From NCBI GenBank assembly GCA_020641055.1, contig CP067345.1:3713317-3777316 (forward strand): a stretch of DNA of 64,000 nt, written 5' to 3'. The stretch is from Clostridioides sp. ES-S-0010-02. GTDB taxonomy: Bacteria; Bacillota; Clostridia; Peptostreptococcales; Peptostreptococcaceae. Positions 25,018 through 42,758 of this stretch are shown one piece after another (positions within the stretch are counted from its first letter, which is position 1; each line of letters begins with the position of its first letter). The notes under the pieces are model-generated. The model ran no database searches and was not told where the DNA came from. It saw nothing but the letters and a program-made list of their open reading frames with translations. Position numbers and translations under genes: made by a program.

Positions 25018-25554
25018 TTAATTATCTTGTTTAGTATCAGAATCAAAAGGAATCCATGCACGTCCAAACTCTTTATCTTTAAATAAATAGGATAATCCAG
25101 TTATTTGCTTTAATCTAAGAATCTCCTCAATATCCATCCCTAAGTGCTTTGATATCCATTTATCAGATTTTCCAATATCACAAAGTTCCTTTATAATATT
25201 GCTCATTAAATCCACATTATGTGAACCTCTTGCACGATTGTGACGAATAGTACTTGCCATTCTCTCATCAAGTGATTTATCAATTACTGAAACAGGAAGT
25301 ACTCCACCTTCTCTATCATATATATCCTTATTTTCAAGCATTATTCGATATCTATGAAAACCATCTACAATAACATATTTGTCATTTTCTGGATTATAAT
25401 AACAGACAATCGGCATTGTATATCCATCTTCTTTTATACTTTTATACAGCAACTGCATTTCTGGTGGAGCTACTGCATTTGGATTATAGTCGTTAGATTC
25501 TATCTTTTCAATTGGGACAGCGATGATTTCATATACAGGACTTTTATACTTCAT
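25018..25554 (-). CDS. ParB/Srx-like nuclease-domain protein, IbrB-like
   Basis: 178 residues. Residues 8-115 form a ParB N-terminal domain: VPIEKIESNDYNPN, then LYKSIKEDGYTMPIVCYY and VIVDGFHRYRIMLE (the DGxHR motif), then ERMASTIRHNRARGSHN. A helix-turn-helix-like region follows (GKSDKWISKHLGMDIEEILRLKQITG). The ATG overlaps the stop of the PAPS-reductase-like gene by four bases. This pair matches IbrA/IbrB, named in E. coli for activating expression of phage-borne eib genes. ParB-fold domains of this type can have NTPase or nuclease activity; which applies is unknown. Confidence 0.82.
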   Translation of the reverse strand: MKYKSPVYEIIAVPIEKIESNDYNPNAVAPPEMQLLYKSIKEDGYTMPIVCYYNPENDKYVIVDGFHRYRIMLENKDIYDREGGVLPVSVIDKSLDERMASTIRHNRARGSHNVDLMSNIIKELCDIGKSDKWISKHLGMDIEEILRLKQITGLSYLFKDKEFGRAWIPFDSDTKQDN

Positions 25555-26885
25555 AGCATCTTAACTCCTATCTTAGAAAATTTTTCATACTTTTTCTTAA
25601 TGTATTCTGTTTTCATTCTTTGCTCTTTTGTAGGACCAAATCCCATAAACTTACACATATGGTCATTTTTTAAAATACAATAACACATTCTTTTCCAACT
25701 TGGTATATCTTTAGTAAATTTAATATCATCTGTGTCATCAGGTATATCTCCTAAGAATACGACTCTACTTTTTTTATCTTTTGTATGATTAGAAATTCCA
25801 TTTATTTCTATATTATACCCTTTTCTTATCAACTCACATATAGCGATTTCTGGCAAACCACCACCCTTTTTATGCCAAAAGTCGATAGATGTTGAAAATT
25901 TTTTAATATAATTATTTCTTATATCTTCAGGTAGTGTATCAAGCAGAAAATAAGTGAAACTTTTCCATGTATGTCCTTCTGGCAACTTTACACTACGATA
26001 CCCCATAGCTTTTGTTTTTCCATAAATAGAAGTAAAATTAGCCCCTTGTACTCTAGCAACCAATTTCACCCATACTTCTGGGTCCAATATCTTATATAAG
26101 TTTAAACTCTCTTTTGCTGAATCATTGAAAGGAGATGCTACTCTCATTTTTCTTGGAGGCAATCCAGCTTTATAGAACAAATCATAGATTTTATTGTACT
26201 CATAGTCGAATTTATAATTGGCTACCCAAACATCTTCTAGTCCCCAGTCATATAAAGGAGATGCTGTCCATACATTTTTAAACTCCTTTGTTATCCAACA
26301 CTTGCCTTTATATCCATGCTGTTTATTCACAATAGCACAATAACGTTGTAAGGATTCTGAAGCTCTTGTTCCAAGTAAACAAGCAACTTTTGCACCCTTA
26401 TGCTTGTTTCTCATCCACCTACCAAATTGCTTTGCCAAACTTTCCTGCTTCATCTTATACTTATAGTAGGTAAAAAGATTATTTTCTTGATTTATTACGT
26501 ATTCTTTGTCTGGCATTTTTCTTACCCATAATTCTTCTTTCTCATCATCCCATGGATACCAAAACATTTCATGATTACCTACAGCTGTTCTCGTAGCCAT
26601 TGGCAGACATACCCAATATGGTTCAATATCTTCAAGATTGTCTTCAAACATTTTTTCAACATATTCTGTTGTCATACTATATTGAGCCTCAAAATCTTGA
26701 TGAAATACTCCTATTTTGGATTTTATATTATATTTTCTTTTATAATCCAAAACTAAATTCAATAATAGACCACTATCTTTTCCTCCACTGAAAGATACAT
26801 AGATATAATCAAATTCACTGAAAACATAAGAAAGTCTGTCTTGAAAAGCTTCAAATACACTGGATTCCAAATATCTTTTATCCAT
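25551..26885 (-). CDS. PAPS reductase-like (DUF3440) protein, IbrA-like
   Basis: 444 residues; AAAGGGG upstream of ATG 26885. An adenine nucleotide alpha-hydrolase fold with the PP-loop SFSGGKDSGLLLNL (about 32-45) defines the PAPS reductase/ATP-sulfurylase-like superfamily. ACLLGTRASESLQR at about 160 and WTASPLYDWGLEDVW at about 200 are the next conserved blocks; the C-terminal part corresponds to DUF3440 with Cys residues (RMCYCILKNDHMC). Partner of the ParB-like gene. Related PP-loop enzymes include DndC/SspD of DNA phosphorothioation, so a nucleic-acid-modifying or defence role is possible. Confidence 0.83.
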   Translation of the reverse strand: MDKRYLESSVFEAFQDRLSYVFSEFDYIYVSFSGGKDSGLLLNLVLDYKRKYNIKSKIGVFHQDFEAQYSMTTEYVEKMFEDNLEDIEPYWVCLPMATRTAVGNHEMFWYPWDDEKEELWVRKMPDKEYVINQENNLFTYYKYKMKQESLAKQFGRWMRNKHKGAKVACLLGTRASESLQRYCAIVNKQHGYKGKCWITKEFKNVWTASPLYDWGLEDVWVANYKFDYEYNKIYDLFYKAGLPPRKMRVASPFNDSAKESLNLYKILDPEVWVKLVARVQGANFTSIYGKTKAMGYRSVKLPEGHTWKSFTYFLLDTLPEDIRNNYIKKFSTSIDFWHKKGGGLPEIAICELIRKGYNIEINGISNHTKDKKSRVVFLGDIPDDTDDIKFTKDIPSWKRMCYCILKNDHMCKFMGFGPTKEQRMKTEYIKKKYEKFSKIGVKML

Positions 26886-32266: not shown

Positions 32267-32317
32267 AAAAAAAGCACTTTTAAACAATTAAACAGTAATA
32301 TTTAAAAGTGCTTTTTT
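32267..32317. terminator. Bidirectional terminator between ATPase and giant GTPase genes
   Basis: AAAAGCACTTTTAAA pairs perfectly with TTTAAAAGTGCTTTT; T run on the plus strand and A run (T on minus) on the other side, serving both convergent genes. Confidence 0.88.
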
Positions 32318-32385: not shown

Positions 32386-35300
32386 CTATATTTCAATTAA
32401 TCTCTGTTCATAGCATTTTAGTTCATTTTGTTTTAGATAGTTAAATTCAGACTCTACATAGATACCACAACCAATAAACTCAATTGTCAGATTTGGTATA
32501 TTCTCTTTCAGTATACTCATCTGCTCATATATAATTTTTTCCCACAAATCAGCCTGTAATATAGAGAAATACTTCATAATTTCTCCATTGTTATCCATAT
32601 CCTTTTTAATTTCAGACCAGTTTTTTAACAAAACGCCTCTTTTATCAATGTATCCAAGTTTTTTAAAGCTCTCTATACTCTGATTCCATGCATCTTTGCT
32701 ACTCTTCTCAAAATATGACTCTAGCTTTTTATTCTGCTCACTTGTCAATAGGTCATAAGAAAGCTTCTTATTAAAATGTGCTTTCAAAGAAAGCTTAGCC
32801 ATAGAATATGGGCTTCTACCAGAATTTAATCCCGCATTTTTAAACTTTTCTATTCCTTTATCTTCTATTGAAGACCAGATAGAGTTTACTGAATCTGAAT
32901 CATCATCTTTTTTATATTTAACATCCAAGCCATGTGTAATATCGATATAATTTTGTGGAAATACATATTGATAGTGCATATCTTTGTTATCATCATATAG
33001 AGAAAAATATCCTTTATCATATAAATGCATATGTACATTTATTTTTAAACTATCATCTAAAATATTTCGTCTAAGATTAGGTATATTTGCATAAATAGTC
33101 ACATATTTCATTGCATCATAGTTTTGATTTAGTGGAATTTCAAAGCTAATTTCTTCTCCTGTCAAAAGCTTTTTCACTTCTTCTTCATTACAATCATATA
33201 AAGAAAATGTATTTTCAAATCCCACACGTGATTTTCCTGCTAAACTTCCTGCTAATGGTATTTTCAAAATATGATTATCTGTCTTTTGCCATTGATAAGT
33301 ATCTTGAACTAAAAACTCTTTAATTTGTCTATTCTGTTCCTTTGCCTGCTTTAGCACCTCATCTTCATTTTCTGTTATCCCTACATGACATCTATTTAAG
33401 ATATTTACTATATTGCTTCCAAATGGAAATGTCCATAATTGAAAAGCTGCTGCCTCCAATTGGCACAAATATCTAATCTGATTCAATTCAATTTGATGAA
33501 TAAGCTTTTTCTGATACTCATTCATCTGGTTACCACTGTCTGACATTTGATAAATCAGTTCTCCCATTGCAAGATTATCTTTTTTCTTGTCAATCTTATC
33601 AGTAATAATAATCTGAGCATCCATCATATCCTGTACTTTTTTGAAAATCCCAGAAATATCCTCTGAATTTTCCATTTTCAAGATTTCAAACTTCTTAATT
33701 AATTCAGTTAGGACATCTTTCATTTTTAGTCTGCTTATTTCATTTTCAAAAATATCCTGATTTTTAACTGTAGTATCAAATCCGTCTACAAATGGTATAA
33801 TAGATTCTTTCAATGTTTTATTTTTGAACTCTTCCATCTGAATATTTAAATTATCTAGTTTTTTAATATTATCCTCTTTTGACTTAATCGCATCTTTAAC
33901 TACTTTTATTTTATCTTCAAAGCTAGCTTTTACATTTAGACAATTATTAACACTACTAATTGCTGTATTAATAAAAGAACAACTTGCACTACCAATGCTT
34001 AATACATTTTTAATAGTTGCTGTTTTTTGCTGTCTTTCAATAGATGCTTTACACTTCTCTAGTGCAACCAATTTATCTTTTTGTTGTTTATTACTATAAT
34101 TTGCTTCCAACATACCCATTTCTTTTTTCTGAATGCTTTTGTATATCTTTTCATATTCGCCTTCATCCAAGCCATTTTTTGCTACTGCAATGTCATTTTC
34201 TTTCCCTTGGTAGTCATTATTATCTAAGGACTTAGTCATAATCTCTTTAATTTTATTAAAATTTTCTCTCTTTCCATCATCAACACCGACTAGTTTATTT
34301 GTCATTGCTCCTAAAGCATTCTTTCTATCTTCATTTAACTGAGTTCCAAGGACAAAACTCATACCTTCAGAATCTATTTTGAAATCTGAAAAATTAACCA
34401 TTCTGTTAGTCCATTGATACTCTTCTTCCTTAGCTGAAAGATTTTCTTTTAAAGATTTTGCACTATCAAAAGCTCCTAAGCACGCTTGACCAATACCACT
34501 TAATGATGATAGTAAACTCAATGCACTCTGTATTCCAGAAAGAATTAGTTGTATTTTCATCTGTTCTTGAAGTTTTTCCTTCTTTTCTTCTAGTTTCTTT
34601 ATATCTTCTTTTTCATCTTCTTTTATCTTTAGAATTTCTTGAATCAAAAGATTCATTTTTGCTCCAACAGAAAGCATTTTATTTTCAAGCTCTTTTTTCA
34701 AAACTTCTATCTGTTGATTTCCTGAGTTAATTTGAGTTAGAACACTTTCCTTATAGGTATTGAAATATGATTCTTTTAATTCATCTTTCTTTCCTTGTTC
34801 CAATTCTTTTAAAGTCTTCTCTAGATAATCTGTCAGAGTTCGAATATCTGTAACACGATTTCCTCCAATTTCATCTTCCTCTATCATCTGCATGTAAAAT
34901 GCTGCCTTCTGTTCTAATGCAAATAAAATCATACTCCATTCACTAAAACTCTGATTTTCTTTTACAAAAGCTTCTATTCTATTAGACTGCATCAATTTAT
35001 TTATAAGGTAGTCATAAATCTCTTTTGCTTCTTGGTAAAACGCTTTCTTAATATGCATATCATCTAAAGAAATTACTTCTTTATTTTTCTTATCAAATTT
35101 ATAATACTTCTGAAGAATTTCTCTATTTAACTGCATTTCCACTTTCTCAACTGCATTAAAAATCTCATAAATATGCGAAATTTCTAAAATATCAGCTTCT
35201 AAAATTCCTACTGCACATAAAAGTTTAAGATTTCTATATCCTTTACTTCCAGAAAAACCAAATCTTTCAAAGAATTGATAGAAAAATGTATCCATTGATA

Positions 35301-37590
35301 GAGAATACTCTTGCTTTAACAATTCGTTTTCTACTAATGACTTTCCAGGATTTCCTTCTTTTCCCTGTGCTCCATCTAGACCTGAGTCTGCAAGCTTTTT
35401 AATTGTCCAGTCCTTGTGTTTTGTATAAAGATCATCTAATGCCTTTCCATCATCTGCTGTTTCCTCACTATCTGAACCACTCCCTATCACATATCTATCA
35501 AAATAGTAATAGTTTATGTCACTATAACCCGTTTTACCAGAAATTCCTGTATACATTCTTGCTTCTTCAAAAATTCCGCGGATTCCTCCAAGACCCCCAG
35601 CTCCACCTTTTCCTCCAGAACCGCCTTTTCCAGCTAAGCCATGTCTTCCGTCTATTTGGCTTATAGAACTTTTTAGAACTGTTGCTTCTCCAAGGAGATA
35701 AATCTGTCCAGCCTTACTTCCAAGACCAGCATTTCCACCATCTCCACCTGTTCCTCCAGTATTTCCTTGTTTTCCTTTTTCTGCTTCTATTATATAGTAT
35801 TTTGCACCTTTTTCCTCAGCAAACTCTTTTTTCTCTGGTTTAGAGCCTAGTTTTGCATTTGCTCCAGCTACTCCAGATGCTCCTGTTTCTCCTACTTTTC
35901 CATCTTGACCATTTCCACCTTGTCCACCGTCAGCATAAAGCTTAAGTTCGCCTTCTTTTTGTATATGTTTAAAAGATATTAAAATATCGCCTGAGGTTCC
36001 TGCATTATTTCCGACTCTTCCATTCATTCCGTTATAAATAGAACTTTCTCCATCCAATTTTTTTGCGTCATTTCCAGAAACATTAATTGAATAAGAACCT
36101 TTTGGTATACATAATCTTTCAACTAATAGAACTATATTTTTACCTGAGAAAACATCCTTCTTCATATCACAATCTATTTTTAGCTCACACTCTCCATACA
36201 TATATATAGATGATAATTCATTAAGTTTATAGCCAGATATTATTTTAGTTAAATCTGATAAATTCACTTTAGGTACAGGAATATATATAGAAAGCACTTT
36301 ATCTTTTTCATATGATTTTATATATGTACAATTTTGGATTTTTTCTCTTCTGTATTCTGCATCTAGAAGCTTCTCAGCTTCTTCTTGTTCCAATTCCTTC
36401 TCTGCTATCCAGTATTTAATACATTTTAATGTATCTTCCAGTGTTGTATTTAATAATGACTTTAATAATTCACTTAGACCGACAATATTAGTTTCTTTGC
36501 AGTAACTATTTAGCTCTAGAACAAGGTGTATTTTTTCTAATATATTTACTTTTTGCACTCCATCACCATAGAAAAGCCCTTGTACAAACTCCATAAGTTC
36601 TTCAATACTATTTGTTTTACATAAACTCTGATACATTTGTTCCAACTGAGATTTTTTTTCTTTTAGATTTTCTATAGAAGATAAAATGGAAATAGAATCT
36701 TCTAATGCCTTTTTTACACTTTCTATATAAGGAGCTAGAAGTTTTTCTAGTTCTTTATATGTTGTGTCAACAGCTTTTTGTATCTCCATTTTACAAGAAG
36801 CAGTAAGCATTAATCCCATATCAGTTTTCTTGAAAGTAGTTGGAAGTTTTTCTAATTCTCTCAATAGATTTTCTGGCTTTGTGTCTAGTGGATTACACAA
36901 TTCTATAGAAACATTATCTGCTAGTACCACATTTAACAGATATACCAGTTCCTTATAACCTTCATAATATTTTTCTTGGCTATCTAGGTCTTCTTTTACT
37001 TTTTTCAGTATATTTCTAACTTTCTCTTTTGTCACGCTACCACTAAGTGGCTTAGGTATTTTATTGATAAGAAAGAAAAAATTTTCCTTATACTGTGTAT
37101 ATTCATTAAACATATCTTTTAAGTTTTTAGCTGTATCAATTAACAGTGTATGTCTAGAGTCCAGTAAAGACTGGTAGTCTAAAATGACTACTATACCTTT
37201 TACTTTTAAAGATGCAGATATAGTTTCTCTTACAAGCATTGCTCCTGCAATCATATACTCTGCTCCACGATTATCAAAAAATCCAGGACAATCGCATAAA
37301 GAAAATGCTTTATTTTCAATATCTACAACTTCTGGGCATAAAGTCTTAGAATATACACCATTACCAATATCAACTGCTGAATCTTTAGCTGTGATGTACA
37401 CTTGTCCAGTTTCCGCATCTGTTTTTTCTTCCATATCACAACCTTTTAAATAGTTGATACAAGTGCTTTTTCCAACCCCTGAAGCACCCAGGAATAACAA
37501 AATCGATTTTTCTTTTAAATTGTATCTTTCCAGTTCATTCCTTCCATTTTCCAAAAGATTTATGATTCCATTATACAATTCATTTGACAT
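32386..37590 (-). CDS. Giant GTPase with collagen-like and coiled-coil regions
   Basis: 1734 residues without signal peptide. The N-terminal G domain has P-loop LGASGVGKST (about 34-43), the G3 motif DCPGF (100-104) and NKIP at about 176 in place of NKxD. Residues 260-480 are helical. Residues about 545-690 are glycine-rich, with GxxGxx periodicity (GGQGGNGQDGKVGETGASG; GGTGGDGGNAGLGS; GLAGKGGSGGKGGAGGLGG), and a shorter piece DGAQGKEGNPGK follows at about 747. A long helical/coiled-coil section (about 940-1330) has KLEEKKEKLQEQMK-type heptads, and a globular C-terminus ends it. The gene is 14 bases downstream of a paralogous GTPase gene. No known family covers the whole protein; a membrane-remodelling or defence GTPase is possible. 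Confidence 0.75.
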   Translation of the reverse strand: MSNELYNGIINLLENGRNELERYNLKEKSILLFLGASGVGKSTCINYLKGCDMEEKTDAETGQVYITAKDSAVDIGNGVYSKTLCPEVVDIENKAFSLCDCPGFFDNRGAEYMIAGAMLVRETISASLKVKGIVVILDYQSLLDSRHTLLIDTAKNLKDMFNEYTQYKENFFFLINKIPKPLSGSVTKEKVRNILKKVKEDLDSQEKYYEGYKELVYLLNVVLADNVSIELCNPLDTKPENLLRELEKLPTTFKKTDMGLMLTASCKMEIQKAVDTTYKELEKLLAPYIESVKKALEDSISILSSIENLKEKKSQLEQMYQSLCKTNSIEELMEFVQGLFYGDGVQKVNILEKIHLVLELNSYCKETNIVGLSELLKSLLNTTLEDTLKCIKYWIAEKELEQEEAEKLLDAEYRREKIQNCTYIKSYEKDKVLSIYIPVPKVNLSDLTKIISGYKLNELSSIYMYGECELKIDCDMKKDVFSGKNIVLLVERLCIPKGSYSINVSGNDAKKLDGESSIYNGMNGRVGNNAGTSGDILISFKHIQKEGELKLYADGGQGGNGQDGKVGETGASGVAGANAKLGSKPEKKEFAEEKGAKYYIIEAEKGKQGNTGGTGGDGGNAGLGSKAGQIYLLGEATVLKSSISQIDGRHGLAGKGGSGGKGGAGGLGGIRGIFEEARMYTGISGKTGYSDINYYYFDRYVIGSGSDSEETADDGKALDDLYTKHKDWTIKKLADSGLDGAQGKEGNPGKSLVENELLKQEYSLSMDTFFYQFFERFGFSGSKGYRNLKLLCAVGILEADILEISHIYEIFNAVEKVEMQLNREILQKYYKFDKKNKEVISLDDMHIKKAFYQEAKEIYDYLINKLMQSNRIEAFVKENQSFSEWSMILFALEQKAAFYMQMIEEDEIGGNRVTDIRTLTDYLEKTLKELEQGKKDELKESYFNTYKESVLTQINSGNQQIEVLKKELENKMLSVGAKMNLLIQEILKIKEDEKEDIKKLEEKKEKLQEQMKIQLILSGIQSALSLLSSLSGIGQACLGAFDSAKSLKENLSAKEEEYQWTNRMVNFSDFKIDSEGMSFVLGTQLNEDRKNALGAMTNKLVGVDDGKRENFNKIKEIMTKSLDNNDYQGKENDIAVAKNGLDEGEYEKIYKSIQKKEMGMLEANYSNKQQKDKLVALEKCKASIERQQKTATIKNVLSIGSASCSFINTAISSVNNCLNVKASFEDKIKVVKDAIKSKEDNIKKLDNLNIQMEEFKNKTLKESIIPFVDGFDTTVKNQDIFENEISRLKMKDVLTELIKKFEILKMENSEDISGIFKKVQDMMDAQIIITDKIDKKKDNLAMGELIYQMSDSGNQMNEYQKKLIHQIELNQIRYLCQLEAAAFQLWTFPFGSNIVNILNRCHVGITENEDEVLKQAKEQNRQIKEFLVQDTYQWQKTDNHILKIPLAGSLAGKSRVGFENTFSLYDCNEEEVKKLLTGEEISFEIPLNQNYDAMKYVTIYANIPNLRRNILDDSLKINVHMHLYDKGYFSLYDDNKDMHYQYVFPQNYIDITHGLDVKYKKDDDSDSVNSIWSSIEDKGIEKFKNAGLNSGRSPYSMAKLSLKAHFNKKLSYDLLTSEQNKKLESYFEKSSKDAWNQSIESFKKLGYIDKRGVLLKNWSEIKKDMDNNGEIMKYFSILQADLWEKIIYEQMSILKENIPNLTIEFIGCGIYVESEFNYLKQNELKCYEQRLIEI

Positions 37591-37604
37591 ATATCCATCC
37601 CTTT

Positions 37605-40106
37605 CTATACTTCAGCACAATAGTTTTGATATTTCTCTTTAACAAAGCTTTCTTCAACTTTTAAAACTGCTGTTGATTTTTTATAATTTGGATTATTATA
37701 TCCTCCAGATTCTCCTCTATCTCCATAATCAGCATACTCTCTTGATGGACCTTCTTTTCCTTTTTCCCAACTTCCACCTTCAAGAGTTATACGATAACTA
37801 GTAATACTAGTTAGTTTATAATCCCAACTTTTAAAATATCCTGTATAGTATACAGTAGAATCTATAGCACTTGGAGAGAATGAAAGTGTATTATAACCAT
37901 GATGACCACCTTTTCCTCCACTTCCACCAAATCCTGGTCTTCCATCTGGACCTCTTTCTCCATCTCTTACTGTTATATCACAACAACTGATTAACTTCTC
38001 TCTCTTTTTATCTGAATCTGCCAAGAAGTAAATATTTCCTTTACTTCCTCCATTTCCACCTCTTCCAGCATTTCCTCCTTTTTCTCCTTTTCCTCCTTTT
38101 GCACCACTTGTTCCTTCTGCAAAATAACCTTTAAACATTTGTCCATAGAAATAACTTGTATATCCTGCATCACTTCCATTTCTACCTGTGCTTCCAGCCA
38201 CACCATCTTTACCATCTGTTCCTCTTGAACCATTTCCTCCATTTGCTATTAGTGTAAGGCGATAGTTTCTAATTTCTTCTTTAATGTACAAATAAATATT
38301 TCCTGCATCTCTACCATCTTCACCATTGATTCCATATATAGAATTATCTATAAGATTTCCACTCTTTCCACTTACATTAATCTTAGAATTACTACTTACA
38401 TCAAGATTCTCACAAGAAATAATGATATTTTTTTCTGATGCAAAATCCATTCCAAGATTAATATCCATATAGATAGTGTCTTTAGCTAAAAACATAATTG
38501 TAGAGACATCATCTCCCACATTTCTATTTCTAAAAGCTTCTAAAACACTGCTAATTACCAAGTTTTTAATTAATGCTTTAACTTCTATTACCGTCTTTTC
38601 TTTAAGTATAAATGATTTTATTATAAATGGATTTAAAATATATTTACTTACAAGATTTCTAATTATTTCATTTCCTTTTTCTCCATATGCATTTAATCTT
38701 GTTATATTTGCTTCTAATTCTTCACTATTTCTATCTGTAAGATTCTTTAAAATAGGCTCAAAATCACGTTTACTATATATGTAGTCTGTTTTATTTGCAA
38801 CTTCCATCAATTTATCTCTATTTGATAATGTCCATACCTGTTTTTGTACCTCATAAGAAACTAAAATCTCTTCTATTTTCTTTCTTATAATAATAAATTT
38901 TTGTTCCATTATACTTTTACTTGTTTTTTCTATAATAGATTCCATATATACAGAAGATAGTGAAATTTCAGCATTTCCATGGTCTGTATATTTATTTAAA
39001 TCTTTAATTATATCTAAGTTTCTTCTTATCTCATTTTGTAATTTTATACATGTGTCTTCCAAGAATAATCCACTTTCTCCTGACAATAAATTGATAAATT
39101 TATCTAAAGTAATACTCTCTGCATTAACTGAACTTTCTAACCAGTTTTTAAATATGTCTACTACTCTTTCATATTTTGACATTTCTTGAATCATTGTTAC
39201 TCTTTCAACCTTCTTAATAAAGTCTTCTGTATATTCCTTGACATAAACTTCTAGTCTAGATACTACACTACTTTGAATATCTTTTATTAATGTATCTAAA
39301 ACTAATCTTGCATCTGCACTGATTGGATATTGGAATGCTGATGTTTTATCTTTTACTTCTTCTAATTTTATTACTTCTTTTAATAATCCTTCTCTTTGCT
39401 CTGCTTCAAGTGGTTTACAAAGATGAATATTTTTTCCTTCTCCTTTTAGCAATTCTTCAAATAACCAAGCTTTATCTTTTATATTATTTTCTGGACTTTC
39501 ACACAATTGTTCGTATTTTTTTCTAATCACATTATATATTTGTTTTTCTGTTCTTCCTAAAAAGCTTTTAGAAATAAAGAAAGTAATACTTCCTCTAAAA
39601 TTCTCTTTATGAAGACACATATTTAATTGTTGAAATAAATCAAGTACTTTTGTAAGTCTAGCCTCTAATATATCTGCTTCTGGTATTAGTACAACTACTC
39701 CACATATAGATGCAGAATTTCTAAACACCTCTCCTAACGAAACTGCTGCACTAATGTCATGTGCTACTCCTCTGTTATCACTAAATCCTGCAGTATCACA
39801 TAATTTTGCATCCATTCCTTCTACTTCTCTTCTCATATCTACAATATTTGGATACAAAGTTTGTGAAACAGCTCCTGAGCCAATTTCTGCAACAGGGTCT
39901 ACACATTCAATATAGGAGATACCAGTATCTTCATCTTCTACTTCCTTCATTTCACATCCTGCAAGATAATTAATTGCTGTACTTTTCCCACAACCTGTGC
40001 CTCCAAGAATCAAAATTAGATTCTTATTTATAGCTTTATCTATTGCTACTTTTCCTTCATCTAGTAGGATTTTGATTTCTTCTAAAAGCTTATTTTTTTC
40101 TCCCAT
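37605..40106 (-). CDS. Paralogous large GTPase with collagen-like segment
   Basis: About 833 residues from ATG 40106 (AAGGGAG seven bases upstream; the 25-residue upstream extension has no site). G domain: P-loop LGGTGCGKSTAINYLAG (34-50), G3 DTAGF (104-108); no clear NKxD, FFISKSFLG lies at its place. It shares INYL-GC-M-E...TG--YI...IG-G--S-TL-P--VD with the 1734-residue neighbour, so both come from one ancestor. A helical middle (280-560) is followed by GGNGSRGTDGKDGVAGSTG and GGKGEKGGNAGRGGNGGSKG repeats (about 600-740) and a tyrosine-rich beta-like tail. It lacks the long coiled-coil section. Cotranscribed with the larger partner. Confidence 0.78.
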   Translation of the reverse strand: MGEKNKLLEEIKILLDEGKVAIDKAINKNLILILGGTGCGKSTAINYLAGCEMKEVEDEDTGISYIECVDPVAEIGSGAVSQTLYPNIVDMRREVEGMDAKLCDTAGFSDNRGVAHDISAAVSLGEVFRNSASICGVVVLIPEADILEARLTKVLDLFQQLNMCLHKENFRGSITFFISKSFLGRTEKQIYNVIRKKYEQLCESPENNIKDKAWLFEELLKGEGKNIHLCKPLEAEQREGLLKEVIKLEEVKDKTSAFQYPISADARLVLDTLIKDIQSSVVSRLEVYVKEYTEDFIKKVERVTMIQEMSKYERVVDIFKNWLESSVNAESITLDKFINLLSGESGLFLEDTCIKLQNEIRRNLDIIKDLNKYTDHGNAEISLSSVYMESIIEKTSKSIMEQKFIIIRKKIEEILVSYEVQKQVWTLSNRDKLMEVANKTDYIYSKRDFEPILKNLTDRNSEELEANITRLNAYGEKGNEIIRNLVSKYILNPFIIKSFILKEKTVIEVKALIKNLVISSVLEAFRNRNVGDDVSTIMFLAKDTIYMDINLGMDFASEKNIIISCENLDVSSNSKINVSGKSGNLIDNSIYGINGEDGRDAGNIYLYIKEEIRNYRLTLIANGGNGSRGTDGKDGVAGSTGRNGSDAGYTSYFYGQMFKGYFAEGTSGAKGGKGEKGGNAGRGGNGGSKGNIYFLADSDKKREKLISCCDITVRDGERGPDGRPGFGGSGGKGGHHGYNTLSFSPSAIDSTVYYTGYFKSWDYKLTSITSYRITLEGGSWEKGKEGPSREYADYGDRGESGGYNNPNYKKSTAVLKVEESFVKEKYQNYCAEV

Positions 40107-40227
40107 GTATTTTCTCCCTTTTTTATAAAATTTTTTAATATTAAAATAACTGTGCTTGTAAAATAAAGCCTTTACTAACACAGTTATTTTATTTTATATA
40201 TCTAATTATATTTTTTATTTTATATAT

Positions 40228-40736: not shown

Positions 40737-41972
40737 TTACACATTTACATGTGTCCCTTTATACAAAACTAATGTTGCCACTCCTATAAGTATCATGCCC
40801 ATAAAAGCAGGTGTCGCATGACCAAGAAATACATAGATTTGACCTCCAATGATAGGTCCAATTATTCTTGCTAAAGATTGAATGGATTGACTACCACCTT
40901 GAATCCTCCCTTGCTCACTAGAATCGACAGACTTGGATAGCATCCCATTGAATGAAGGTCCAAAGATAGAATCGCCAAAACCAAATATAAACATTCCAAC
41001 AATAAAAATAGGATAGAACGAAAACAAGGCTGATGCTGCAATAAAACTGTAACCTATAATCTCTGAAACCATTCCAAGAATTGCTATCTGTACATCACTA
41101 AGTTTTTTCAAAAGCTTTGGCATTATAAAACCTTGTGAAATGATGTCTTGTATACCCATAATTGAAAATACAAGTCCAATTAGTGCGGGTTTCCAATTGA
41201 AAGTGTCTATTGTAAATTGTGAAAAAACTGACTGTAAAGACCCATTTGGTATCCAAAGTAAGAATGCTGATAAAAGTAGCCTTTTTAAGTTTTTTACAGA
41301 AAGTACATTTGCAAGCTGTATAAATGGATTTAGCCTTGCAAGTGTAATCGACTTTAATCTATTCTTCTTATCAAGGCTCTCAGGCATATACAGAAATCCA
41401 TAAATAACATTAAGTAAAGTTATTATTGCTCCAAAATACATGGGTACAGAATAACCAAACTTAGCAAGTAATCCACCTACAGTTGGACCAATAACACAGC
41501 CTACACCTGAAAATGCACTCACCCATCCAAAGTATTTACTTCTATGTTCTCTAGGAGTAATATCTGCAAAATATGCGAAGATAGTGCTTATGCTCCCACC
41601 TGTTACACCTTCTATTATACGTCCAACAAATAATACCCATAGAGCTCCTCCTATTCCAAAAACTAAGTACCCTATTGCAGAACCCAAAAGGCATAATAAG
41701 AGTAATGGACGACGTCCATATCGGTCACTCAAAGCTCCAAGCCCAGGAGCTGCAAAAAACACACAGATTGCATAAACAGAAGTTAGCATTGTAACAACTA
41801 TAGCTTGTTCTTCTGGACTATTTGTATAAGGTTGCACTAAGAATGGAACGACAGGTGCTATGATAGTGAATCCGATTCCGCAAAGAAACGCAGATATAAG
41901 ACCAAATATCAAAGCCTTTTTATCTACAATTTGTTCTGTATTCTGTTCATTGTTTGATTTAAATATAAACAC
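40737..41972 (-). CDS. MFS drug efflux transporter (DHA1/TetA-like)
   Basis: 411 residues with twelve predicted membrane segments. The MFS loop 2-3 motif is GLGALSDRYGRRPLLL; motif C-like GVGCVIGPTVGGLLAKFG in helix 5 indicates a drug/proton antiporter. Substrate unknown. It follows a MarR gene on the same strand, but has its own promoter with a palindromic element, so MarR control is likely. Confidence 0.9.
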   Translation of the reverse strand: MFIFKSNNEQNTEQIVDKKALIFGLISAFLCGIGFTIIAPVVPFLVQPYTNSPEEQAIVVTMLTSVYAICVFFAAPGLGALSDRYGRRPLLLLCLLGSAIGYLVFGIGGALWVLFVGRIIEGVTGGSISTIFAYFADITPREHRSKYFGWVSAFSGVGCVIGPTVGGLLAKFGYSVPMYFGAIITLLNVIYGFLYMPESLDKKNRLKSITLARLNPFIQLANVLSVKNLKRLLLSAFLLWIPNGSLQSVFSQFTIDTFNWKPALIGLVFSIMGIQDIISQGFIMPKLLKKLSDVQIAILGMVSEIIGYSFIAASALFSFYPIFIVGMFIFGFGDSIFGPSFNGMLSKSVDSSEQGRIQGGSQSIQSLARIIGPIIGGQIYVFLGHATPAFMGMILIGVATLVLYKGTHVNV

Positions 41973-42166
41973 TTAAATTCTCCTCTCAAAAATTATAATT
42001 TTGTTTCCTTTAGAAACATATTTATTTATTTCTTTTTTACTTTTTTACCTTTTTACGTCTTTACCTCTTTACTTTTTTCATTATTTTATTTCCCTAGTAG
42101 CATGTTCATCTTTTATCATTTCGCCTCATTTGGGGGTATATTCCTATATTCGTTTTTTGATTCCTT

Positions 42167-42207
42167 GGAAACATATTTATAGTATCATTTTTTTGTTTCC
42201 TTGTCAA
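42167..42207 (-). promoter_or_regulatory. Promoter and candidate operator of the MFS gene
   Basis: On the minus strand TTGACA (42207-42202) and TACTAT (42184-42179) are spaced by 17 bases. The arms GGAAACA (42167-42173) and TGTTTCC (42194-42200) bracket the -10 box; a further GAAACATATTTAT copy occurs at about 42013. A likely MarR or other repressor site. The remaining leader of about 200 bases has no gene. Confidence 0.7.
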
Positions 42208-42227
42208 CAAAATAGGTAACAATAAAA

Positions 42228-42260
42228 ATACAGCCTATTCTCAATAGAGTTAGGCTGTAT
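42228..42260 (-). terminator. Terminator of the MarR gene
   Basis: ATACAGCCTA/TAGGCTGTAT stem of 10 bp, followed on the minus strand by TTTTTATTG. Confidence 0.82.
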
Positions 42261-42290
42261 ATGATTTCATTTTCATTATTCTGATTTATT

Positions 42291-42758
42291 CTACTTTAAT
42301 ATTATCCCCTGTTTTTTTATTTCTTCATCCAAATGTCGGTTATAATTTTCGACAAAGCTAATCATACTGTCAAATTGTTCATCAGTTACCTGCTCAAATA
42401 CAACTTTATCACGTTCTTGAAACTCTTTATGAAGTTCCTCATGGATATTATAAACTGTTTTACCTTGCTCAGTAAGTCTAAAATAGATTTCTTTTTTATT
42501 ATCAGGCTTCTGGTAACTTTCAATAACACCTTTTTTTATTAACTTTTTAGTTACTTTACTTATGGCGCCTCTAGTCATATAAAAGTATTCTGCCAGTTTT
42601 GTCACATTGCAGTCTACATTTCTTCCAATGTATTCAATGCAATGTACTTCAGAAGACTTATAACCCTTGAGACTCTCTTCCATCTTAAATTTATTAAGCC
42701 AAACAGTCTTATTTAGTAAATCTCTAAAACCCATCATGACCTGTTCTTCTTTATTCAT
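42291..42758 (-). CDS. MarR-family transcriptional regulator
   Basis: 155 residues; GGGAGG upstream of ATG 42758. Winged helix with NVTKLAEYFYMTRGAISKVTKKLIKKGVIESYQKPDNKKEIYFRLTEQG, the classical MarR DNA-binding and wing sequence, flanked by dimerisation helices. It probably represses itself through the palindrome at 42778-42791 and the MFS exporter downstream. Confidence 0.9.
   Translation of the reverse strand: MNKEEQVMMGFRDLLNKTVWLNKFKMEESLKGYKSSEVHCIEYIGRNVDCNVTKLAEYFYMTRGAISKVTKKLIKKGVIESYQKPDNKKEIYFRLTEQGKTVYNIHEELHKEFQERDKVVFEQVTDEQFDSMISFVENYNRHLDEEIKKQGIILK

What the first reader, a model, noticed from the sequence alone, without database searches (positions are those of the whole stretch)
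32386..40106. Tandem giant GTPases with internal collagen-like segments
Two adjacent paralogous genes encode cytoplasmic-looking proteins of 1734 and about 833 residues. Seen: P-loop G domains, DxxG motifs, degenerate or absent NKxD, long helical parts and an internal GxxGxx glycine-rich block; only the larger one has an added coiled-coil arm. Collagen-like repeats are normally in secreted proteins, yet no signal peptide is present. Family knowledge: large paired GTPases with helical arms (dynamin-like) remodel membranes and some protect against phage. Inference: a previously undescribed two-protein GTPase machine whose glycine block forms a polyproline-II-type bundle or gel that links units.
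Basis: partly seen in the sequence, partly recalled or inferred. Interest (0 to 1): 0.85.

Follow-up and report, generated by a model that had tools for sequence, protein, structure and literature searches.

The report
Paired GTPases with glycine-helix blocks
Clostridioides bacteria carry two adjacent, related genes for very large GTP-binding proteins that each hold a glycine-repeat module, and the same unusual layout turns up on plasmids of bacteria that live inside protists and algae, so this looks like an unnamed protein machine whose job is still unknown.

Summary
Two paralogous genes lie 14 nt apart on the minus strand: P2 (37605-40106, 833 aa) and P1 (32386-37590, 1734 aa). Both have an N-terminal GTPase domain with intact G1 and G3 and a degenerate G4, a probably helical stretch, then a glycine block. 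P1 adds about 970 residues. Both are under purifying selection. They lie side by side in 7 of 8 genomes of the genus (Clostridioides); 92 relatives from other genera gave one marginal P-loop match. Four profile searches over wider Bacillota draws found only the own genome.

Two additions. The glycine block is not collagen: short GXX runs, almost no proline, as expected of a polyglycine-II bundle. And the layout G domain - helices - glycine block recurs on plasmids of Rickettsiales endosymbionts ('Candidatus Megaera/Megaira'), whose blocks align beyond the glycine register. One of those proteins carries two peptidase domains; another stands in its own tandem GTPase pair.

Dynamin and Obg membership were tested and not met. 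Neighbours show no defence island. Structure predictions failed, so fold and mechanism are inferred. I favour a GTP-controlled two-protein assembly acting inside the cell.

The parts
37605..40106 (-). P2: 833-aa GTPase with glycine block
   Evidence: MMR_HSR1 on the isolated G domain 22.7 bits, cut-off 21.9; dN/dS 0.27-0.36 in 5 comparisons
39552..40106 (-). P2 G domain (residues 1-185): GGTGCGKST, IG...S.T, DTAGFSDNRG, SKS in place of NKxD
   Evidence: lowest dN/dS of the four P2 regions, 0.08-0.16 in 3 comparisons
38517..39536 (-). P2 middle part (residues 191-530), probably helical
   Evidence: Composition: G 2%, P 1%, KRDE 32%; inference
37872..38336 (-). P2 glycine block (residues 591-745), GXX runs separated by strand-like stretches
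   Evidence: profile match to the Megaera/Megaira blocks
32386..37590 (-). P1: 1734-aa GTPase with glycine block and long C-terminal arm
   Evidence: MMR_HSR1 25.7 bits; dN/dS 0.17-0.19 in 5 comparisons
37036..37590 (-). P1 G domain (residues 1-185): GASGVGKST, IG...S.T, DCPGFFDNRG, NKIP
   Evidence: dN/dS 0.09-0.15 in 3 comparisons
36301..37035 (-). P1 first probably helical part (residues 186-430)
   Evidence: Composition; inference
35521..36045 (-). P1 glycine block (residues 516-690)
32389..35310 (-). P1 C-terminal arm (residues 761-1734), absent from P2
   Evidence: One Pfam match up to E 5, at E 1.8; one solved chain up to E 10, at E 0.063; profile found in 1 of 391 Clostridia genomes, its own; these searches used residues 770-1734
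34492..34548 (-). first hydrophobic stretch of the arm (residues 1015-1033)
   Evidence: Kyte-Doolittle mean 1.53
33949..34005 (-). second hydrophobic stretch of the arm (residues 1196-1214)
   Evidence: Kyte-Doolittle mean 1.33
37591..37604 (-). 14-nt gap with the P1 ribosome-binding site (AAAGGGATG), almost unchanged in 6 of 6 loci looked at
40143..40190 (-). 12-bp hairpin (AAAATAACTGTG / CACAGTTATTTT) upstream of P2; both arms seen in 6 of 7 loci (one with a mismatch), one arm in the seventh because the stretch printed ended there
   Evidence: read by eye
32268..32317 (.). inverted repeat after P1, probable terminator shared with the convergent P-type ATPase gene; same repeat in 4 of 5 loci looked at
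   Evidence: read by eye; not listed by the consensus scan, whose loop limit is 8 bases

Best explanation
P2 and P1 are the two subunits of one intracellular GTP-controlled assembly, made from one two-gene transcript. The G domains are TRAFAC-type and lean towards the septin/GIMAP/IRG kind, which pair through their G domains and polymerise (recalled). GTP binding would let P1 and P2 pair; the helical parts behind the G domains would carry the change to the glycine block. The block would be a folded bundle of short polyglycine-II helices, working as a flat docking or stacking face that joins subunits to each other or to a target. The P1 arm, with two hydrophobic stretches, would touch the target or a membrane.

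Shown: the two genes, the motifs, the conserved pairing, purifying selection, and the same domain order in unrelated bacteria. Inferred: the transcript (spacing, ribosome-binding sites, terminator-like repeat), the fold of the glycine block, pairing, assembly and membrane contact. The physiological job (defence, stress, or interaction with a eukaryotic host) is not known.
For: - Adjacent, same order, in 7 of 7 carriers among 8 genus genomes (one carrier has broken copies); 14-nt gap with a near-invariant ribosome-binding site in 6 of 6 loci looked at.
- Purifying selection on both genes in all 5 comparisons made.
- G1 and G3 intact in all 8 rows of the G-domain alignment from Clostridioides, Megaera/Megaira and Neochlamydia.
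- The G-domain profile matches septin-3, septin-9 and GIMAP4 chains over stretches that reach past the P-loop, E about 2e-5 to 6e-5.
- The glycine blocks of the two lineages align with hhalign score 82.6 over 186 columns; 60 controls that keep every glycine-holding column of the Megaera/Megaira alignment and permute the rest give mean 32.0, maximum 49.2.
- A second tandem G-domain pair exists on a Megaera plasmid: a P2-like protein next to a G-TPR protein with a nearly identical G domain, so it arose separately.
- Glycine-rich PPII bundles are known in a GTPase (Obg), and that review speculates that bundles may combine at their ends (PMC8409303, passages read).
Against: - No structure: both prediction jobs failed, so neither the bundle nor pairing is shown.
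- In one search P-loop-only chains (Midasin 1.5e-8, ABC transporters about 1.5e-5) and GTPase Der (7.7e-6) score as well as or better than septins, so the septin/GIMAP placement is weak. In one search Dynamin_N matches more rows (6 of 8) than AIG1 (5), IIGP (3) or Septin (2); that listing does not show cut-offs.
- G4 is degenerate in both proteins, so GTP specificity and hydrolysis are uncertain.
- The two hydrophobic stretches are moderate (1.53 and 1.33), not clear transmembrane helices.
- Paralogous neighbours can arise by plain tandem duplication without forming a complex.
- The P2 tail (746-833) and the P1 linker (691-760) are weakly constrained (dN/dS 0.46-0.90 and 0.40-0.74).
Confidence: 0.42

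Rival explanations
1. The pair is an anti-phage or conflict system: one GTPase senses, the large one executes by acting on the membrane, like bacterial dynamin-like or GIMAP-type defence proteins.
For: Faster protein evolution than some neighbours: against G005, P1 79% and P2 75% identity, P-type ATPase 92%, aldehyde dehydrogenase 96%. Absent from 1 of 8 genus genomes. Paired paralogous GTPases are described in bacterial conflict systems (DO-GTPases, PMC7159879, passages read).
Against: No PADLOC model beyond a P-loop match. Annotated neighbours are transport, metabolism and regulator genes. G3 is DCPG / DTAG without the Walker-B glutamate reported for DO-GTPases, and no GAP1 was named among nine window proteins scanned. 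Present in 7 of 8 genus genomes, unlike most defence genes (recalled).
Confidence: 0.18
2. The proteins derive from, and act on, eukaryotic cells: a GTPase family shared between protists and the bacteria that live with them, acquired by horizontal transfer, released or delivered into host cells.
For: The distant relatives found lie on plasmids of Megaira, Megaera and Neochlamydia, bacteria of protists and algae (records name an alga and a ciliate; the Neochlamydia record names no host, amoebae recalled). One carries RickCE_cat and Peptidase_C48 domains, above Pfam cut-offs. The G-domain profile has eukaryotic septin and GIMAP chains among its matches. Not found in the other Clostridia and Bacillota genomes drawn.
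Against: Only plasmid, phage and viral collections, Bacillota draws and one close-relative scan were searched, so other bacterial hosts may have been missed; eukaryotic genomes could not be searched. No signal peptide seen in P1 or P2, no secretion genes among the annotated neighbours, no peptidase domain in the Clostridioides pair.
Confidence: 0.2
3. An Obg-like translation GTPase: the glycine bundle docks on the ribosome.
For: Obg also joins a glycine-rich PPII bundle to a GTPase (PMC8409303, passages); the best Pfam model for P1 is named a ribosome-binding GTPase model.
Against: PF01018 matches one place in this genome, elsewhere; domain order is reversed; block-versus-Obg scores are not decisive (7 to 59 of 500 keep-glycine shuffles reach them, with an Obg start that my script cut short).
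Confidence: 0.08
4. Secreted collagen-like adhesin or spore-surface protein.
For: Glycine repeats; C. difficile has collagen-like spore proteins (recalled).
Against: Almost no proline, short runs, no signal peptide seen, GTPase domain in front; no collagen model matched at E up to 1.
Confidence: 0.04

Closest known systems
'Candidatus Megaera polyxenophila' plasmid GTPases WPX99759.1 / WPX99760.1 (CP113869.1)
   Same: Tandem pair; the first has G domain - helices - glycine block like P2.
   Different: The partner carries TPR repeats, not a glycine block and arm; its G domain is a near-identical copy of the first, so the pairing arose separately.
'Candidatus Megaira' UCM94756.1 (CP084577.1)
   Same: G domain - long middle part - glycine block.
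   Different: Flanked by Peptidase_C48 and RickCE-like catalytic domains; no second gene annotated as a GTPase among the nine features shown around it.
Obg/CgtA GTPase
   Same: GTPase with a glycine-rich PPII bundle (PMC8409303, passages).
   Different: Bundle is N-terminal (recalled) and a different Pfam family (PF01018), not matched by the pair.
Septin / GIMAP / IRG GTPases
   Same: Weak profile similarity of the G domain.
   Different: No Pfam Septin, AIG1 or IIGP match for P1 or P2 as whole proteins at E up to 1; G4 differs; no glycine block in those families (recalled).
Bacterial dynamin-like proteins
   Same: Large tandem GTPases with helical parts (recalled); Dynamin_N matches 6 of 8 isolated G domains of the wider family at E up to 0.1.
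   Different: Dynamin_N and GED not met by the pair.
DO-GTPase / GAP1 conflict systems (PMC7159879, passages)
   Same: Paralogous TRAFAC GTPase pairs in an operon.
   Different: No Walker-B glutamate at G3 and no GAP1 or effector gene named among nine window proteins scanned.

Membership tests
TRAFAC-type P-loop GTPases (Pfam MMR_HSR1) | G1 GxxxxGK[ST], G3 DxxG, curated model passed | tested here: met
   P1 25.7 bits as a whole; P2 22.7 bits only as an isolated domain, 17.6 as a whole (cut-off 21.9)
TRAFAC-type P-loop GTPases (Pfam MMR_HSR1) | G4 NKxD for guanine specificity | tested here: not met
   NKIP in P1, SKS in P2
Dynamin-like GTPases | Dynamin_N G domain (PF00350) | tested here: not met
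   Absent at E up to 1 for both whole proteins; 12 matches in the own genome, none at the pair; isolated G domains of the wider family match in 6 of 8 rows at E up to 0.1, best 4.2e-5, cut-offs and row names not shown
Dynamin-like GTPases | GTPase effector domain (PF02212) | tested here: not met
   1 of 11 arms (that of P1), 18.6 bits against cut-off 21.4
Dynamin-like GTPases | Membrane binding and tubulation | not testable with these tools
   Needs biochemistry
Obg/CgtA | Obg domain (PF01018) | tested here: not met
   Single match in the genome at 3193639-3194103, not at the pair
Septin/GIMAP GTPases | G-domain profile similarity beyond the P-loop | tested here: inconclusive
   Septin-3 E 2.5e-5 over columns 9-105 and GIMAP4 E 2.4e-5 over columns 74-160, but P-loop-only chains score as well or better
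Collagen or collagen-like secreted proteins | Long Pro-rich GXY repeats, secretion signal | tested here: not met
   1 and 3 prolines in the two blocks, runs of 3-9 triplets, no signal-peptide-like stretch
Glycine-rich PPII-bundle proteins | Solved or confidently predicted bundle of PPII helices | not testable with these tools
Known anti-phage systems (PADLOC) | Match to a defence model beyond the P-loop | tested here: not met
   P1 none at E up to 1; P2 mad8 17.6 bits over 36 P-loop residues
DO-GTPase conflict systems | Walker-B glutamate and a GAP1 partner gene | tested here: not met
   DCPG / DTAG at G3; no GAP1 named among the nine window proteins scanned with Pfam at E up to 0.001

The most novel reading that the evidence does not exclude
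A previously unnamed family of GTPases in which a septin/GIMAP-like G domain drives the assembly of polyglycine-II bundles: the bundle is the polymerising or docking face. The module moves between protist-associated bacteria (and possibly protists) and Clostridioides by horizontal transfer, fused to different working ends (peptidases, TPR, a long arm), and pairs in tandem more than once because it works as a two-subunit switch.
Probability: 0.25. Interest if true: 0.8.

Novelty: new variant of a known kind. Interest (0 to 1): 0.55.

Why it matters
A glycine-helix bundle coupled to a GTPase is known, to my knowledge, only from Obg, where it docks on the ribosome. A second, unrelated coupling, in proteins of up to 1734 residues and shared by a gut bacterium genus and endosymbionts of protists and algae, would be a new way to build a GTP-switched assembly. 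It would also give large conserved Clostridioides genes a testable function.

Tried and rejected
Dynamin GED in the P1 arm: subthreshold in P1 (E 0.0043) and in only 1 of 11 arms when relatives were scanned; dropped as chance.

Homology of the strand in front of the glycine block between the two lineages, taken alone: not significant (44 to 129 of 500 shuffles reach the score in the four cross-lineage pairs). For the whole block, 3 of 4 cross-lineage pairs beat all 500 keep-glycine shuffles; P1 against P0007 does not (12 of 500 reach it). The profile test is the stronger evidence.

Solved-structure relatives of the arm and of the glycine block (best E 0.038): nothing credible. PHROGs: weak matches of the P2 block to two tail-fibre families (E 3.4e-4 and 2.1e-3), taken as the same glycine pattern, not kinship.

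Relatives in IMG/VR: five scans, no relative. Phage records: none.

Profile searches outside the genus: only the own genome in each (the listed handles suggest that searches used one draw and another). In the rows shown for at most two candidates per genome were scored, so a distant relative could have been missed.

A resemblance of the P1 arm to TcA-type or alpha-pore-forming toxins was considered from general appearance only; no Pfam or solved-structure match supports it, so it is dropped.

Full report
What is there. Two genes lie on the minus strand, 14 nt apart: P2 (37605-40106, 833 aa) and then P1 (32386-37590, 1734 aa). Each has its own ribosome-binding site. In the six loci compared, the gap and the P1 site are almost unchanged. 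An inverted repeat follows P1 and meets the convergent P-type ATPase gene; the same repeat is present in 4 of the 5 loci looked at. It was read by eye and is not in the consensus scan's list, whose loop limit it exceeds. A two-gene transcript is the natural reading; transcription was not tested.

GTPase domains. Both proteins begin with a P-loop GTPase domain. G1 is canonical. A conserved S-x-T follows, then G3 (DCPGFFDNRG in P1, DTAGFSDNRG in P2). The G4 motif is NKIP in P1 and SKS in P2. P1 passes the Pfam MMR_HSR1 cut-off as a whole protein; P2 passes only as an isolated domain. A profile of eight G domains finds septin-3, septin-9 and GIMAP4 chains over long stretches at E around 2e-5 to 6e-5. 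P-loop-only chains score as well or better (Midasin 1.5e-8), so the septin/GIMAP leaning is only a lead. Among isolated G domains, Dynamin_N matches 6 of 8 rows, AIG1 5, IIGP 3 and Septin 2, cut-offs not shown. For the pair itself, the Dynamin_N, GED and Obg tests were not met.

Glycine blocks. Glycines recur at every third position about three times more often than composition predicts. Each block holds five GXX runs of 3-9 triplets, with 1 (P1) and 3 (P2) prolines, separated by strand-like stretches. That is unlike collagen and like the glycine-rich PPII bundles reviewed in PMC8409303 (passages read), which names Obg, acetophenone carboxylase, snow-flea antifreeze proteins and a phage spike tip.

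P1 arm. Residues 770-1734 gave one Pfam match at E up to 5, at E 1.8, and one solved chain at E up to 10, at E 0.063. The arm holds two moderately hydrophobic stretches in a proline-poor, charged background. A profile of the arm found only its own genome among 391 Clostridia genomes.

Distribution. In a set of 100 relatives, 7 of 8 genomes of the same genus carry both genes side by side. One (G004) lacks both. Of 92 genomes from other genera, one gave a marginal P-loop match (E 9e-4) and 91 gave nothing. The one locus with a public title is Clostridioides difficile strain 173070, which gives the genus; the window's own species name was not given. In G003 both genes are broken in the assembly: P2 carries in-frame stops and P1 is cut short. 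Wider profile searches found only the own genome: full profile 1 of 391, glycine block 1 of 398, G domain 1 of 398. There was no relative in phage records or in five scans of IMG/VR. Chromosomes of other phyla were not searched by profile.

Selection and place. dN/dS against five genomes is 0.17-0.19 for P1 and 0.27-0.36 for P2. In the three genomes split by region, the G domains give 0.08-0.16 and the glycine blocks with the strand before them 0.28-0.38. The G domain is the slowest part of P2; in P1 residues 1261-1480 of the arm are similarly slow (0.07-0.12, against 0.09-0.15 for the P1 G domain). The P2 tail (0.46-0.90) and the P1 linker 691-760 (0.40-0.74) are weakly constrained. For neighbours the values are 0.05-0.08 (P-type ATPase, four genomes), 0.03 (aldehyde dehydrogenase, two; MarR regulator, one) and about 0.15 (each of two MFS transporters, one genome each). 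So the pair is under selection; P1 evolves about like the transporters, P2 faster, both faster than the other neighbours. The ATPase lies next to the pair in five genomes (window, G001, G002, G005, G006). Only distant homologues of it were found in G007 and G004; G007 is a draft in which the pair sits near a contig end, so absence there is unsure. The other flank differs between genomes. Annotated neighbours are transport, metabolism and regulator genes; the only defence-model hit among ten neighbours is a distant DndC-like one.

Relatives in endosymbionts. tblastn against plasmids found G-domain relatives on plasmids of Rickettsiales and Chlamydiae. Two are informative. The Megaira protein P0003 has the order G domain - middle part - glycine block and adds Peptidase_C48 and RickCE-like domains at its ends, both above Pfam cut-offs. 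The Megaera protein P0007 has the P2 layout and stands directly before P0008, which has a nearly identical G domain followed by TPR repeats. A tree joins P0007 with P0008 (support 81/77) and places P1 and P2, with the Neochlamydia row, on the other side of a 98/97 split; whether P1 and P2 are each other's closest relatives is not resolved. It has nine rows and several long branches. The near-identity of P0007 and P0008 is the plainer evidence that the two tandem pairs formed separately. The glycine blocks of the two lineages align with hhalign score 82.6 over 186 columns; sixty controls that keep the glycine-holding columns and permute the others reach 49.2 at most. Pairwise tests agree in 3 of 4 cross-lineage pairs. 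This is the best evidence that the block is a real, shared domain and not just a composition effect.

Reading. I think the pair is a GTP-controlled two-subunit assembly with a polyglycine-II bundle as the joining or docking face. The recurring layout, the pairing and the selection are shown. The fold, the contact between the proteins and the purpose are inferred. Defence and action on eukaryotic cells remain open rivals; Obg-like ribosome work and a collagen-like adhesin are unlikely.

Literature. Eight searches of the held library were made; two searches returned nothing. In the lists (15 of 17 papers shown; 20 of 966; 1), judged by titles and abstract starts, I saw no paper that I could tie to these genes. 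That covers only the open-access library held here and, a small part of the hits. Passages of two papers were read (PMC8409303, PMC7159879); all others were seen as search listings only.

Noticed in passing
window 40143-40190 (-): A 12-bp hairpin ends 36 nt before the P2 start codon, leaving little room for a promoter in between; both arms are kept in 6 of 7 genus loci at varying distance. It may be a leader attenuator or the terminator of an upstream gene.
   Followed up: partly
window 25018-26885 (-): ParB_N-like gene (just under the Pfam cut-off) and a PAPS-reductase/DUF3440 gene side by side, an arrangement I recall as IbrB/IbrA; the second gives a weak DndC match.
   Followed up: no
window 40737-42758 (-): MFS transporter resembling Tet(42)-type efflux pumps but far below their curated cut-offs, with a MarR-family regulator next to it.
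   Followed up: no
L033:3219-8280 (Megaera polyxenophila plasmid, CP113869.1): Separate tandem pair of GTPases with nearly identical G domains, one with a glycine block, one with TPR repeats.
   Followed up: yes
L022:5260-10494 (Megaira plasmid, CP084577.1): 1744-aa protein combining Peptidase_C48 and RickCE-like domains, a G domain and the glycine block.
   Followed up: partly
L023:5958-12295 (Neochlamydia plasmid pS13): Distant G-domain relative of 1458 aa followed by a 641-aa protein that passed no Pfam cut-off; no glycine block seen by eye.
   Followed up: no
L027 (G003): Both genes are broken in this genome's assembly, while the aldehyde dehydrogenase, TetR and MFS neighbours match over nearly their full length.
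   Followed up: no
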